Both the position numbers and the translations under genes were made by a program. Below the pieces are notes generated by a model. It ran no database searches and had not been told where the DNA came from. It saw nothing but the letters and a program-made list of their open reading frames with translations. From Actinomyces sp. AC-20-1 (lineage in GTDB: Bacteria > Actinomycetota > Actinomycetes > Actinomycetales > Actinomycetaceae), in NCBI RefSeq assembly GCF_023369555.1, contig NZ_JACJVC010000006.1, positions 62,001 to 126,000 of the forward strand: a DNA stretch of 64,000 nt, read 5' to 3'. Position 1 is the stretch's first letter. Every line of letters starts with the position of its first letter. Positions 48,422 to 53,631 of this stretch are shown in pieces.

Positions 48422-48469
48422 GCGTCTGGGGCCCGGGACCACCCGTGGGTGGTCCCGGGCCCCAGACGC
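48422..48469. terminator. Bidirectional terminator with 23-base perfect arms
   Basis: Arms 48422-48444 and 48447-48469 are exact inverse complements with a two-base centre. It lies between the YbjN operon and the convergent sigA gene. Confidence 0.88.
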
Positions 48470-48480
48470 TCAGGCGGCGG

Positions 48481-50148
48481 TCAGTCGAGGTAGTCACGCA
48501 GGACCTGGCTGCGCGAGGGGTGTCGCAGCTTGCTCATCGTCTTGGACTCGATCTGGCGGATCCGCTCGCGCGTGACGCCGTAGACCTTGCCGATCTCGTC
48601 CAGGGTCTTGGGCTGGCCGTCGGTGAGCCCGAAGCGCATGGACACGACGCCGGCCTCGCGCTCGGAGAGCGTGTCGAGCACCGCGTGCAGCTGCTCCTGC
48701 AGGAGCGTGAAGCTCACCGCGTCCGCCGGCACCACGGCCTCGGAGTCCTCGATGAGGTCACCGAACTCGCTGTCGCCGTCCTCACCCAGGGGCGTGTGCA
48801 GGCTGATGGGCTCGCGCCCGTACTTCTGGACCTCGATGACCTTCTCGGGCGTCATGTCGAGCTCGACGGCCAGCTCCTCCGGGGTGGGCTCGCGGCCCAG
48901 GTCCTGGAGCATCTGGCGCTGGACGCGGGCCAGCTTGTTGATGACCTCGACCATGTGGACGGGGATGCGGATCGTGCGGGCCTGGTCCGCCATGGCTCGG
49001 GTGATGGCCTGGCGGATCCACCAGGTCGCGTAGGTGGAGAACTTGAAGCCCTTGGTGTAGTCGAACTTCTCCACGGCCCGGATGAGGCCGAGGTTGCCCT
49101 CCTGGATGAGGTCGAGGAAGAGCATCCCGCGGCCCGTGTAGCGCTTGGCCAGGGACACGACCAGCCGCAGGTTCGCCTCGAGCAGGTGGTTCTTGGCCCG
49201 CTGGCCGTCGTTGGAGATCCACAGGAGCTCACGGCGGTGCTTGGCCTCGAGCTCGCCGTTGTCGCTGCTCAGCAGGTACTCGGCGTACATGCCGGCCTCG
49301 ATGCGCTTGGCGAGCTCGACCTCCTGCTCGGCGTTGAGGAGCGCGACCTTGCCGATCTGCTTGAGGTAGTCCTTGACCGGGTCCGCGGTGGCGCCGGCGG
49401 TGACGACCTTCTGCGCGGGCTCGTCGGCCTCGTCGGAGTCGGAGACCGTGTAGGAGCCGTCCTTGTCCTTGGAGGAGCGCGAGCGCTTGCCCGCCTTCTT
49501 GGCGGCGGCCCTCTCCGCCTCCTCGCGGCGCATGCGCTCGAGCTCACCGGTGAGGGCGGCGATGGAGGGCTCCATCTTGATGCCCTTGATGACCCAGCCG
49601 CGGAAGATGAAGCCGTTGCGGGTGAGGAAGTCGCGGGCGACGACGGGCTCCTCCTCGTCGGGCAGGACGAAGCGCGGCACGGGGCCGTGGCCGTAGGGGG
49701 CCAGGGTGATGGGGTTCTCGAGCGTGCCGTTGCCGGCGATCTCCAGGCCCTCGACCACGGTGCGCGAGCGCACGTAGAGGGTGGCGCCGGGGGCCAGGCG
49801 CACGCCCTTGAGGGAGGCCGTGGTGTTGAAAGGAGCGCGCTTGGAGCCGTCACCGTCCTCCTCGAGGCTCACGTCGAGGTAGTAGTCGCGCAGCTCCGGG
49901 GCGGGGCCCTCGTCCTCGCTCTCCTCGTCGCCGTCACCCGAGACGTCGTCGGAGTCCTCGTCCTCCTCGTCCAGGTCCTCGTCGTCGGAGTCGTCCAGGT
50001 CGTCGGAGTCCTCCGAGTCCTCGTCGTCCTCCTCGTCGTCGTCCGAGCCGTCGAGGTCGTCGAGGTCGAAGTCCTCGGTCTCCTCGACCTCGTCGATGTC
50101 GTCCTTGCGCGAGGAGGCGCGCTTGCGCGAGGCTGTGGAAGTGGCCAC
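48481..50148 (-). CDS. sigA: Principal RNA polymerase sigma factor with beta-helix-like N-terminal insert
   Basis: 555 residues. Regions 1.2 to 4 are standard from about residue 254 ([17 protein letters not shown]): region 2 has [20 protein letters not shown] and [13 protein letters not shown], region 3 [18 protein letters not shown], and region 4 [19 protein letters not shown]. Residues 15-83 are almost only Asp, Glu and Ser. Residues 88-193 are unexpected: the pattern [43 protein letters not shown] and GWVIKGIKM reads like the N-terminal cap and first turn of a right-handed beta-helix protein. The frame is open throughout and codon bias is unchanged. GTG start at 50148 with an AAAGGA ribosome binding site. 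Confidence 0.93.
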
Positions 50149-50322
50149 GGATGTCCTTTCACGTGGGGTGACGTCTCAGGCGGCGGTGCGCGCAGGGCGC
50201 ATGCCACCACCGACGCAGCAGGCAACCGCGCCATTGTAGCGTTTATTCCCGGGGGCCCTCGTGCGCCCATAGCCGCGGCCGATCAGCCCCGGGCCGGCCC
50301 CGGGCCCGTGCCCGGCGCCCGA

Positions 50323-50328
50323 TACGCT
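50323..50328 (+). promoter_or_regulatory. Putative -10 hexamer, polyprenyl synthase gene
   Basis: TACGCT, six bases before the ATG at 50335. Confidence 0.45.
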
Positions 50329-50334
50329 GCGCCC

Positions 50335-51564
50335 ATGAGCGCACCCGCCACCGGCTCCCTCCCCTGCCCCCGTCCCGGCGAGGACTCCCCGGGCCCGGCC
50401 GGTGGCGCCGCACCCGGTGCCGGCGAGCGCGTGCGCGCCGCCGTCGACGCCCGCCTGGCCCAGGTCCTCGAGGAGCACCGCGAGCGGTGGCGGGGTCTCG
50501 CGCCCGCCTGCGACGAGCTCCTCGACGCCGCCGCGGACCTGCTCAGCGGGGGCAAGCGCACCCGCGCCCTGCTCAGCGCGCTCGGCGCCGCCCTCCTGCT
50601 CGACGGCGACGACAGGGAGCGGGCGCTCACCTGCCCCGTGGTCGCGCGCACCGGCGCGGCCCTCGAGCTCTACCAGGCCAGCGCCCTCGTGCACGACGAC
50701 GTCATCGACTCGGCGCAGACCCGCCGGGGCATGCCGGCCGCGCACCGGCGCCTGGCGGCCCTGCACCGGGACTCCGGCTGGCTCGGGGACCCGGAGGCCT
50801 TCGGGCGCCACGGCGCCCTCCTCCTGGGGGACGTGCTGCTGTCCCTGGCGGCCGGGGAGATGAGCGCCCTCGCCGCCGACCGGCCTGCCGGGCCCGGCCC
50901 GGACGCCGCCCGCCGCGCCCTGGCCCGCAGCGCCTTCGACGCCATGACGGCGGAGGTCGCCGTCGGCCAGTACCTCGACATCCGCAGCGAGGTCACCCCC
51001 CTGTCCGCCCCGGGGGCGGAGCCTGCCGCCTCGGCGCAGGCCATGCACGAGCAGGCCCTCGCCGTCGTGCGCCACAAGTCCGCGCGCTACTCCGTCATGC
51101 ACCCCGTGCTCATCGGCGCGCTCCTGGCAGGCGTGGAGCCCGGCTCCGCCCTGCACGGGGCGCTGGCGCTGTTCGGGGAGGAGGTCGGTACCGCCTTCCA
51201 GCTGCGCGACGACGACCTCGGGGTCTTCGGCGACCCGCGGGTCACCGGCAAGCCCGCGGGTGACGACCTGCGCGAGGGCAAGCGGACCGTCCTGCTGTCC
51301 CTGGCCTGGCGGATGACCGACGAGGAGGGCCGCCGCGCCCTGCGGGCCGTCCTGGCCCGGCCCGGGGCCGGGCAGGCCGACCTGGCGGCCGCGGCCCGGG
51401 TCATCGAGGACTGCGGCGCGCGCGAGGCCCACGAGGCCGAGGTCGAGGCCCACCTGGCGGCCGGTCTGGCCGCCCTTGACGGCCTGGCGCCGGGCACGCT
51501 GCCCGAGGCCTCCTCACGCTCCCTGCGGGAGGCGGCGCTGGCCCTCACGCGCCGGCGCGCCTGA
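50335..51564 (+). CDS. Polyprenyl diphosphate synthase (trans-isoprenyl type)
   Basis: 409 residues. LVHDDVIDSAQTRRG (D121, D122, D125) is the first aspartate-rich motif, and FQLRDDDLGVFGD (292-300) the second; GGKRTR binds isopentenyl diphosphate. It condenses IPP with allylic diphosphates to make geranylgeranyl or longer chains for quinones and carrier lipids. The ATG at 50335 gives the normal length and has a -10-like hexamer six bases before it; longer run-in frames cross the antisense of sigA and are not real. Upstream of pknL, as in mycobacteria (Rv2173 near pknL). Confidence 0.93.
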   Translation: MSAPATGSLPCPRPGEDSPGPAGGAAPGAGERVRAAVDARLAQVLEEHRERWRGLAPACDELLDAAADLLSGGKRTRALLSALGAALLLDGDDRERALTCPVVARTGAALELYQASALVHDDVIDSAQTRRGMPAAHRRLAALHRDSGWLGDPEAFGRHGALLLGDVLLSLAAGEMSALAADRPAGPGPDAARRALARSAFDAMTAEVAVGQYLDIRSEVTPLSAPGAEPAASAQAMHEQALAVVRHKSARYSVMHPVLIGALLAGVEPGSALHGALALFGEEVGTAFQLRDDDLGVFGDPRVTGKPAGDDLREGKRTVLLSLAWRMTDEEGRRALRAVLARPGAGQADLAAAARVIEDCGAREAHEAEVEAHLAAGLAALDGLAPGTLPEASSRSLREAALALTRRRA

Positions 51565-51618: not shown

Positions 51619-53631
51619 GTGGTCACGGATCCCCTCATCGGACGCCTCGTCGACTCTCGTTACGAGATCGTCGACCGGGTGGCCCGTGGTGGCATGGCCA
51701 CGGTCTACAAGGCGCACGACCGCCGGCTCGAGCGCAGGGTGGCGCTCAAGCTCATGCACCCGCACCTGGCGGACTCCCCCGACTTCGTCTCCCGCTTCCG
51801 CCGTGAGGCGCGCGCCGCCGCCCGCCTGAGCAACCCGGGCGTGGTCGCCGTCTACGACCAGGGCAGCCTCGACGGCGTCGCCTACCTCGTCATGGAGCTC
51901 GTCGAGGGCCCCAACCTGCGTGACCTCATCACCACCGGGCCGCTGAGCGTCAAGGAGGCGCTGGGGCTCATCGCCCAGGTGCTGCGGCCCCTGGGCGCCG
52001 CGCACCGCGCCGGCCTCGTCCACCGTGACGTCAAGCCGGAGAACGTGCTCCTGCCCTCCGACGGCTCGGTCGCCAAGGTCGCCGACTTCGGGCTGGCGCG
52101 CGCCGTCACCGAGTCCGCGCAGACCACCACCGGCAACGTGCTCGGCACCGTCGCCTACCTCGCCCCCGAGCTCATCACCGCCGGCGTCTCCTCGCCGCGC
52201 GCCGACGTCTTCTCCGCCGGCGTCATCCTCTACGAGCTGCTCACCGGCGAGCAGCCCTTCGCGGCCGACACCCCCATCCAGATCGCCTTCCGCAACGTCC
52301 ACGAGGACGTGCCCCTGGTCTCCGCGCTCGTGCCGGAGGCGCCCGCGTGCGTCGACGTCCTGGTCGCGGACATGACCCGGCGTGAGCCGCGCGAGCGCCT
52401 GGCCGACGCCGACGAGGCCCTGGCGCGGCTGCGCGATGCCGTCGCCGGACTGTCCCCCAGTGAGATGAGCGTCAAGCGCGGGGGCGGCACCGGCTCCCTG
52501 CGCACGCAGGAGGTGCTGGCCGCCAACGCGGAGGCGGCCCGCCAGGCCGTGCGCCAGGAGCCCGAGGCCGACGACGAGGACGCGACCCCGGCCGCCGGCT
52601 TCAGGACCGTCTCCCTGCCCATCGGGTCCATCGGTGCTGAGGACTCGGGGGCCACGCGCTCCCTGGACCGCTCGACCGTGGCCGCCACGGACCAGGAGAC
52701 GACGTCGCTGGCCCGCCCGCGCCACCAGCGGGTGCGCCGTCGGACCGCCGTCGGCCTGGGGGCGCTGGCCGTCCTCGGCGCGGGCGGGGCCGGTGGGCTC
52801 TGGTGGTACACGCAGGCGGGGCCGGGGCGCCACGTCGACGTCCCCCAGGTCGTCGGGCTCGTCCAGGAGGAGGCGCAGGCCGCCGTCCTCGCCGTCGGCC
52901 TGGTGTGGGCGGCGCCCACCCGCGCCTACTCGGACACGGTCGCCTCGGGCTGCGTCATCTCCTGCGAGCCGGACCCGGGCTCCTCGGTGCGCTTGGGGGC
53001 TGCCGTCACGGCGGTCGTCTCGCGCGGCATCGAGCAGAAGCAGGTGCCCGACGTCGTCGGACGCACCCGGGAGGAGGCCACGACGGCGATCACCGAGGCC
53101 GGCCTGGCCGTCGGCGCCGTCACCCAGTCCTTCTCCGACTCCGTCCCCGAGGGGCAGGTGGTCTCCACCAGCCCGGCCGCCGGCGAGATGGTCGACCACT
53201 CCTCCGCCGTCGCCGTCGTCATCTCGAAGGGCCGCCAGCCCGCCACCGTGCCCGGGCTCGCCGGGCTGAACGAGCAGGAGGCCACCACCGCGCTGGAGAG
53301 CGCGGGCCTGGCCCTGGGCGAGGTGACGACCTCGTACCACGACACGGTGGAGGAGGGGCGTGTCATCTCCTCCAGCCCCGCGGCCGGCGCCGAGGACGTC
53401 TACGTCGGTGACAGCGTCGCTCTCGTGGTCTCGCTCGGCCCCGAGATGGTCACGGTCCCGGAGGTGACCGGCAAGAGCGAGACGGAGGCCGTCACCGCGC
53501 TGGAGGCGGCCAGCCTGGTCGTCACGGTCTCCTACGTGTGGGGCGGCCTGTTCGGCACGGCCCGCTCGACGGACCCGGCGGGCGGGGCGAGTGTGCGCAA
53601 GGGCTCGACGGTGACGCTGTACGTCGTCTGA
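51619..53631 (+). CDS. pknL: PASTA-domain serine/threonine protein kinase (PknL/StkP type)
   Basis: 670 residues. Hanks-type kinase domain, about residues 14-275: glycine loop VARGGMATVY, K43, HRDVKPEN (134-141) and DFGLAR (155-160). The juxtamembrane region is acidic. One membrane helix at about 373-400 (TAVGLGALAVLGAGGAGGLW) is followed by four external PASTA repeats, each with a VPxVxGxxxEEAxxAxxxAGL pattern. PASTA repeats sense muropeptides or lipid II, and the kinase would link cell-wall state to division and wall synthesis. The neighbours match mycobacterial pknL (polyprenyl synthase upstream, aroG convergent). GTG start at 51619 with a -10 hexamer six bases upstream. Confidence 0.93.
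   Translation: MVTDPLIGRLVDSRYEIVDRVARGGMATVYKAHDRRLERRVALKLMHPHLADSPDFVSRFRREARAAARLSNPGVVAVYDQGSLDGVAYLVMELVEGPNLRDLITTGPLSVKEALGLIAQVLRPLGAAHRAGLVHRDVKPENVLLPSDGSVAKVADFGLARAVTESAQTTTGNVLGTVAYLAPELITAGVSSPRADVFSAGVILYELLTGEQPFAADTPIQIAFRNVHEDVPLVSALVPEAPACVDVLVADMTRREPRERLADADEALARLRDAVAGLSPSEMSVKRGGGTGSLRTQEVLAANAEAARQAVRQEPEADDEDATPAAGFRTVSLPIGSIGAEDSGATRSLDRSTVAATDQETTSLARPRHQRVRRRTAVGLGALAVLGAGGAGGLWWYTQAGPGRHVDVPQVVGLVQEEAQAAVLAVGLVWAAPTRAYSDTVASGCVISCEPDPGSSVRLGAAVTAVVSRGIEQKQVPDVVGRTREEATTAITEAGLAVGAVTQSFSDSVPEGQVVSTSPAAGEMVDHSSAVAVVISKGRQPATVPGLAGLNEQEATTALESAGLALGEVTTSYHDTVEEGRVISSSPAAGAEDVYVGDSVALVVSLGPEMVTVPEVTGKSETEAVTALEAASLVVTVSYVWGGLFGTARSTDPAGGASVRKGSTVTLYVV

What the first reader, a model, noticed from the sequence alone, without database searches (positions are those of the whole stretch)
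49570..49893. Beta-helix-like segment inside the N-terminus of the principal sigma factor
Residues about 86-193 of SigA do not look like any sigma region. Their order of motifs ([66 protein letters not shown]) follows the N-terminal cap and first coil of right-handed parallel beta-helix proteins such as secreted polysaccharide lyases. It sits between a 70-residue acidic run and region 1.2. A carbohydrate-enzyme-like module in the housekeeping sigma factor would be very unusual and could be a sensing or autoinhibitory domain. The reading frame is open and codon bias is unbroken, so it is not a frameshift artefact.
Basis: partly seen in the sequence, partly recalled or inferred. Interest (0 to 1): 0.78.

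Follow-up and report, generated by a model that had tools for sequence, protein, structure and literature searches.

The report
Sugar-enzyme module inside housekeeping sigma factor
In Actinomyces bacteria, the protein that starts most gene transcription carries a folded module related to part of secreted sugar-cutting enzymes; what it does there is unknown.

Summary
The window encodes a 555-aa principal sigma factor; no Pfam model covers residues 85-192. That segment is homologous to the N-cap and first coil of right-handed parallel beta-helix enzymes: its profile hits PDB lacto-N-biosidases, and profile comparisons give 99.5% and 98.1% against at most 2.1% for 42 scrambled controls. AlphaFold2 with a diverse alignment gives pLDDT 84.9; SigA rows alone fail. 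Nearest relatives are one-coil modules of GH29 fucosidases in the same family. The segment is in 49 of 49 genus genomes, 28 of 28 named loci are Actinomyces, and 0 of 19 sister-genus SigA N-termini read have it. Selection is purifying: pN/pS 0.29, against 0.69 in the acidic tail and 0.074 in the core. It is the genome's only sigma with region 1.2. So a module of an extracellular enzyme was adopted, most likely once, by the housekeeping sigma of a genus. Catalysis is very unlikely. I favour a docking or regulatory surface; sensing and autoinhibition are untested.

The parts
48481..50148 (-). sigA, principal (group 1) sigma factor, 555 aa, GTG start, stop included
   Evidence: only match to the region 1.2 model in the genome
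49900..50103 (-). acidic low-complexity N-terminal tail, residues about 16-83, variable within the genus
   Evidence: sequence; pN/pS 0.69 for residues 1-83
49573..49896 (-). one-coil beta-helix module, residues 85-192
49489..49569 (-). conserved predicted helix directly after the module, residues 194-220 ([17 protein letters not shown]), absent from the relatives
   Evidence: helix at residues 196-220; pN/pS 0.21 for residues 193-214
49429..49488 (-). basic then acidic linker, residues 221-240, leading to the part shared with sister genera (SDSD..DEP.Q.V)
   Evidence: pN/pS 0.59 for residues 215-240
49282..49383 (-). sigma region 1.2, residues 256-289
   Evidence: Pfam PF00140
48973..49185 (-). 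sigma region 2, residues 322-392
   Evidence: Pfam PF04542
48718..48948 (-). sigma region 3, residues 401-477
   Evidence: Pfam PF04539
48520..48681 (-). sigma region 4, residues 490-543
   Evidence: Pfam PF04545

Best explanation
The segment is a small folded module, the N-terminal cap plus first coil of a right-handed parallel beta-helix. It descends from a one-coil accessory module that also sits in GH29 alpha-L-fucosidases of the same bacterial family. It entered the disordered N-terminal tail of sigA, most likely once, before Actinomyces radiated, and has been kept since (this much about 0.95). It has no part that carries an enzyme active site. The most likely role (inferred, not shown; about 0.5) is a docking or regulatory surface: the module, the conserved helix after it and the acidic tail form a rebuilt sigma N-terminus that binds core polymerase, a transcription factor or another cytoplasmic partner and tunes holoenzyme formation or promoter opening at housekeeping promoters.
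For: Homology: PDB profile hits to lacto-N-biosidases; SigA modules against fucosidase modules 99.5%, E 1.2e-22 over 102 columns; against caps of longer beta-helices 98.1%, E 1.3e-13 over 96 columns; 40 column shuffles (max 2.1%) and two reversals (0.1%, 0.6%). The fucosidase module as query finds SigA in 49 of 49 genus genomes. Fold: pLDDT 84.9, pTM 0.73; best Foldseek hits 7v6m, 6kqt, 6kqs, 7v6i. Origin: 23 SigA rows form one group (100/99) that joins 11 fucosidase modules against 28 beta-helix caps (100/95); 8 of the 11 one-coil proteins were given to Pfam and 8 of 8 are GH29. Range: 49 of 49 genus genomes; 28 of 28 named loci Actinomyces; 0 of 19 sister SigA N-termini read. Constraint: pN/pS 0.29 module, 0.21 helix, 0.69 acidic tail, 0.59 linker, 0.074 core. 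Residues invariant in 23 SigA rows but rare in relatives. Only sigma with region 1.2 in the genome. Precedent that the tail matters: removing 179 but not 132 N-terminal residues of M. tuberculosis SigA stops in vitro transcription (PMC10011835, section read).
Against: There is no functional datum. The good structure model used an alignment that holds beta-helix rows, so it is not independent of the homology call; the SigA-only alignment gave pLDDT 46.8, and the best Foldseek hit has only TM 0.45 over the query. RpoB and RpoC of 3 Actinomyces against 18 sister genomes show no genus-specific insert beyond single residues and about nine extra residues at the RpoC end. The module's pN/pS is about four times that of the core and could reflect fold stability alone. 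Nesting inside the fucosidase modules rests on weak support (92/91) and a long branch of 1.43, and the bootstrap had not settled.
Confidence: 0.5

Rival explanations
1. The module is a structural passenger: it folds, and is conserved because misfolding in an essential sigma is harmful, but it only spaces or shields the disordered tail (stability, solubility, protease protection).
For: 19 sister SigA N-termini do without it. The polymerase shows no matching insert. Constraint on the module is much weaker than on the core.
Against: Present in 49 of 49 genus genomes. Many residues are invariant in 23 SigA rows but rare in relatives, among them H154, V157, R159, R172, K188 and K191, and so is much of the helix that follows (whose printed numbers are one lower).
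Confidence: 0.3
2. The module senses a sugar, sugar nucleotide or cell-wall precursor and couples it to housekeeping transcription or autoinhibition. This overlaps in part with the best explanation.
For: The relatives sit in glycan-acting proteins: GH29 enzymes beside F5/8 C domains and lacto-N-biosidases.
Against: I found no known ligand for the one-coil modules. GH136 catalysts D568 and D575 (PMC7335108, passages) lie about 200 residues beyond the homologous stretch, 251-349 of the chain. One coil offers no long substrate groove (inference).
Confidence: 0.14
3. The module has become a region 1.1-like gate that occupies the main channel or masks the DNA-binding parts of free sigma. This is a special case of the best explanation, so the two odds overlap.
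For: It lies where region 1.1 would be, beside an acidic tail, and no region 1.1 model is hit.
Against: It is not helical like region 1.1 (recalled) and its mean net charge over the first 105 residues is about -2, so it is a poor DNA mimic by itself.
Confidence: 0.12
4. Artefact: misassembly, frameshift or chance likeness.
For: No hmmscan or phmmer search with the window sequence alone is strong.
Against: Unbroken module in 49 of 49 genomes; 28 named loci; scrambled controls.
Confidence: 0.01

Closest known systems
One-coil modules of GH29 alpha-L-fucosidases of the same family (no Pfam model matched the module in the 8 proteins scanned)
   Same: 102-column span, 99.5% profile probability; shared end segment with [GNH][WF]
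   Different: Sit behind GH29 and F5/8 C domains in secreted-looking enzymes; lack the K.GIKM end and the following helix; the SigA copy is in a sigma factor, hence cytoplasmic (inference)
GH136 lacto-N-biosidases (7v6m, 6kqs/6kqt, 5gqc, 7v6i)
   Same: N-cap and first coil by sequence and fold
   Different: Longer beta-helix with catalytic residues; SigA has about one coil and none of the catalytic part
PL6 alginate lyases and rhamnogalacturonan lyase 5olr (its PL9 label is recalled)
   Same: Same fold start, weaker hits
   Different: No catalytic part in SigA
Principal sigma factors of sister genera
   Same: Regions 1.2-4 and the SDSD..DEP.Q.V join
   Different: No module in 19 N-termini read; tails look disordered by eye
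ECF41 sigma factors with a fused C-terminal regulatory domain (PMC3426412, abstract and outline seen)
   Same: A sigma factor with a fused non-sigma domain that governs activity
   Different: Alternative ECF sigma with a C-terminal extension; here the housekeeping sigma, N-terminal, beta-helix module, role untested

Membership tests
Group 1 sigma-70 factor | Regions 1.2, 2, 3, 4 over Pfam cut-offs | tested here: met
Group 1 sigma-70 factor | Principal sigma of its genome | tested here: met
   only match to the region 1.2 model in the genome; essentiality not tested
Sigma region 1.1 | Match to a region 1.1 model | tested here: not met
   no region 1.1 model among Pfam hits up to E 1
Right-handed parallel beta-helix, N-cap and first coil | Sequence homology above controls | tested here: met
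Right-handed parallel beta-helix, N-cap and first coil | Predicted fold | tested here: met
   the alignment included beta-helix rows and the best TM over the query is 0.45, so the support is partial; SigA-only alignment failed
Right-handed parallel beta-helix, whole fold | Several stacked coils | tested here: not met
   about one coil, then a helix and region 1.2
GH136 lacto-N-biosidases | Catalytic residues | tested here: not met
   homologous stretch ends near 349 of 6kqs; catalysts D568, D575; no matching part in SigA
PL6 and PL9 lyases | Catalytic residues | not tested
   only the first-coil likeness was seen
Fucosidase-type one-coil module | Groups with these modules, apart from caps of longer beta-helices | tested here: met
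   split 100/95; root at midpoint, long branches, few columns
Fucosidase-type one-coil module | Same biochemical role | not testable with these tools
   the role of the module in the fucosidases is unknown here

The most novel reading that the evidence does not exclude
The only housekeeping sigma of a whole genus carries a ligand- or partner-sensing module taken from secreted glycan enzymes, so that a sugar or cell-envelope signal acts directly on housekeeping transcription without an anti-sigma factor.
Probability: 0.1. Interest if true: 0.92.

Novelty: new variant of a known kind. Interest (0 to 1): 0.7.

Why it matters
Housekeeping sigma factors are among the most conserved regulators, and fused regulatory domains are described for alternative ECF sigmas (abstract of PMC3426412); I know of none in a principal sigma (recall). 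A module of an extracellular enzyme fixed in the principal sigma of a genus shows that the sigma N-terminus can take up and keep a foreign fold. Presence in Actinomyces and absence in the sister genera read makes a clean comparison for asking what the actinobacterial sigma N-terminus does.

Tried and rejected
Single-sequence searches of the segment gave only weak hits: Pfam GlutR_dimer E 0.056, phmmer 7v6m E 0.0069, NCBIfam PelN E 0.045 and PRK06195 E 0.069. Over 30 SigA rows, GlutR_dimer is hit by 22, PRK06195 by 17 and PelN by 6, all with best E between 0.018 and 0.045. GlutR_dimer and PRK06195 cover the helix and linker and are taken as chance. The PDB profile search also listed two unrelated chains, 3g0k E 0.052 and 4zya E 0.2.

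AlphaFold2 with SigA rows only failed, pLDDT 46.8.

Genus-specific inserts in RpoB or RpoC were sought and not found (3 Actinomyces against 18 others). Loss of RbpA as a reason for the module was rejected: RbpA is in 39 of 39 genomes.

Charge of the module says nothing: mean net charge -2.0 in SigA, -3.3 in fucosidase modules, -1.9 in beta-helix caps.

Literature: searches gave no paper on such a module; this is open-licence PMC only, searches listed 15 of 19 and 10 of 18 papers, and only titles and starts of abstracts were seen. Searches returned no paper.

Full report
What is there. The minus-strand ORF 48481..50148 encodes a 555-aa sigma factor. Pfam finds regions 1.2, 2, 3 and 4 at residues 256-289, 322-392, 401-477 and 490-543, no region 1.1, and nothing above cut-off in residues 1-255. 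It is the only match to the region 1.2 model in the genome, so I take it as the principal sigma. Residues 16-83 are an acidic tail. A conserved predicted helix follows at about residues 194-220.

Homology. The segment alone gives only phmmer E 0.0069 to 7v6m. A profile of 30 SigA segments gives 6kqs E 4.8e-4, 7v6m E 8.1e-4 and the PL6 lyase 7dmk E 0.0081; two unrelated chains follow at 0.052 and 0.2. A full-length SigA search of the genus also hit, at E 3.8e-6 and 29% identity, another protein of one genome, G043. It is a GH29 alpha-L-fucosidase. Its module, used as query, finds the SigA segment in 49 of 49 genus genomes and matches in 22 of the other 164 family genomes. Against 296 phylum genomes it matches in 10: the own SigA; six genomes with open frames that look like secreted beta-helix proteins by eye; one with a stop inside (G426); and two in 49-residue frames (G298, G330) that I take as chance.

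Two classes of relatives. I read 20 regions chosen, plus L039. Eleven of the 21 hold a one-coil module that ends after [GNH][WF] and is followed by a linker or another domain. Ten continue in beta-helix-like sequence. Of the 11, eight were given to Pfam and all eight are GH29 enzymes with no beta-helix hit. Of the 10, six were given to Pfam: five hit Beta_helix, two above and three below its cut-off, and one, L129, showed only an LPXTG anchor. Profile comparison of SigA modules with the one-coil class gives 99.5% and E 1.2e-22 over 102 columns, end segment included. Against the longer-helix class it gives 98.1% and E 1.3e-13 over 96 columns. Two reversed profiles gave 0.1% and 0.6%, and 40 column-shuffled ones at most 2.1%.

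Tree. I cut 62 rows to their first 112 residues; 118 columns were kept. The 23 SigA rows form one group (100/99). They join the 11 one-coil modules, and the 28 caps of longer beta-helices lie on the other side (100/95). Inside that set SigA lies among the fucosidase modules (92/91, branch 1.43). The program warns of few columns, meeting long branches and an unsettled bootstrap, and the root is at the midpoint. The exact donor is therefore open; the joint group is well supported.

Structure. With SigA rows only, AlphaFold2 fails (pLDDT 46.8). With 62 diverse rows it gives pLDDT 84.9 and pTM 0.73: about 90 for residues 85-184 and 77 for 185-194. It has strands at residues 88-91, 123-127, 131-133, 147-152, 159-161 and 185-187, and a long helix at 196-220 of lower confidence. 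Foldseek against PDB has one hit below 0.001, 7v6m (8.7e-4, TM 0.45 over the query), then 6kqt, 6kqs, 7v6i, rhamnogalacturonan lyase and PL6 enzymes. Against viral models nothing is below 0.001; two of the first five hits are named right-handed beta helix. The alignment contains beta-helix rows, so the model shows that the sequence fits this fold and is not independent evidence.

Range and age. The profile finds the whole module in 49 of 49 genomes of the genus. In a scan of genome contigs, 51 stretches matched the patterns, 28 were confirmed, and 28 of 28 carry the name Actinomyces; the patterns are SigA-type, so distant copies would be missed. Full-length SigA against 200 family genomes matches from residue 197 or later in every listed non-genus row, while genus rows start at residues 2-41 (the list is cut). 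I fetched 20 sister SigA regions and read 19 N-termini (L176 gave none): none has the module, and the best score of the broad profile is E 0.47. In 394 class genomes, 36 match the combined profile, own included. From 44 loci segments were read, three places twice, and the only one whose frame holds the sigma motif is the window's own; matches without a locus were not read. The module was thus most likely gained once before the genus radiated. That the window itself is an Actinomyces is an inference from these names.

Constraint. Of 58 loci 56 gave a coding sequence; after merging identical proteins 37 remained. pN/pS is 0.69 in residues 1-83, 0.29 in 84-192, 0.21 in 193-214, 0.59 in 215-240 and 0.074 in 241-555. 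The module is under real purifying selection, less than the core. Core positions are shared with the relatives (for example G99, G101, G121, G139, G141, G153, W185). A second set is invariant in 23 SigA rows and rare in relatives (for example H154, V157, R159, F160, R172, K188, K191), together with much of the helix (that script's numbers are one lower than the true residue numbers used here).

How it may work. Catalysis is very unlikely: the homologous stretch of the E. ramulus GH136 enzyme ends near residue 349 of the chain, while its catalytic residues are D568 and D575 (PMC7335108, passages). The position suggests action on the sigma N-terminus. In M. tuberculosis SigA, removal of 179 but not 132 N-terminal residues stops transcription in vitro, and the authors point to acidic residues 132-179 (PMC10011835, section read). 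Actinomyces also keeps an acidic stretch next to region 1.2 (DSDEADEP) and has the module upstream of it. I judge a docking or regulatory surface most likely, a passive spacer next, and ligand sensing or a region 1.1-like gate less likely; the last two overlap with the first. A search for a partner feature in RpoB and RpoC (3 genus genomes against 18 others) found none, and RbpA is present in 39 of 39 relatives searched.

Known or new. My searches found no paper describing this (open-licence PMC only, listings seen). Fused regulatory domains exist in ECF41 sigmas (PMC3426412, abstract). A principal sigma with a module of glycan enzymes is a new variant of a known kind.

Noticed in passing
L039:4097-4429 and the modules listed: GH29 alpha-L-fucosidases of the same family carry a one-coil beta-helix module that no Pfam model matched in the 8 proteins scanned; its role is unknown.
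   Followed up: partly
window 51619..53631: A 670-aa protein near sigA looks by eye like a serine/threonine kinase with PASTA repeats; M. tuberculosis SigA is phosphorylated in its N-terminal region (PMC10011835, abstract), so a link could be tested.
   Followed up: no
window 48445..51564: A 1039-aa plus-strand open frame runs antisense through sigA; its first part is probably a by-product of high GC content, its last part reads by eye like a polyprenyl synthetase.
   Followed up: no
L184, L185, L186 (RpoC C-terminus): RpoC of three Actinomyces ends in a slightly longer aromatic and acidic tail than in 18 sister genomes.
   Followed up: partly
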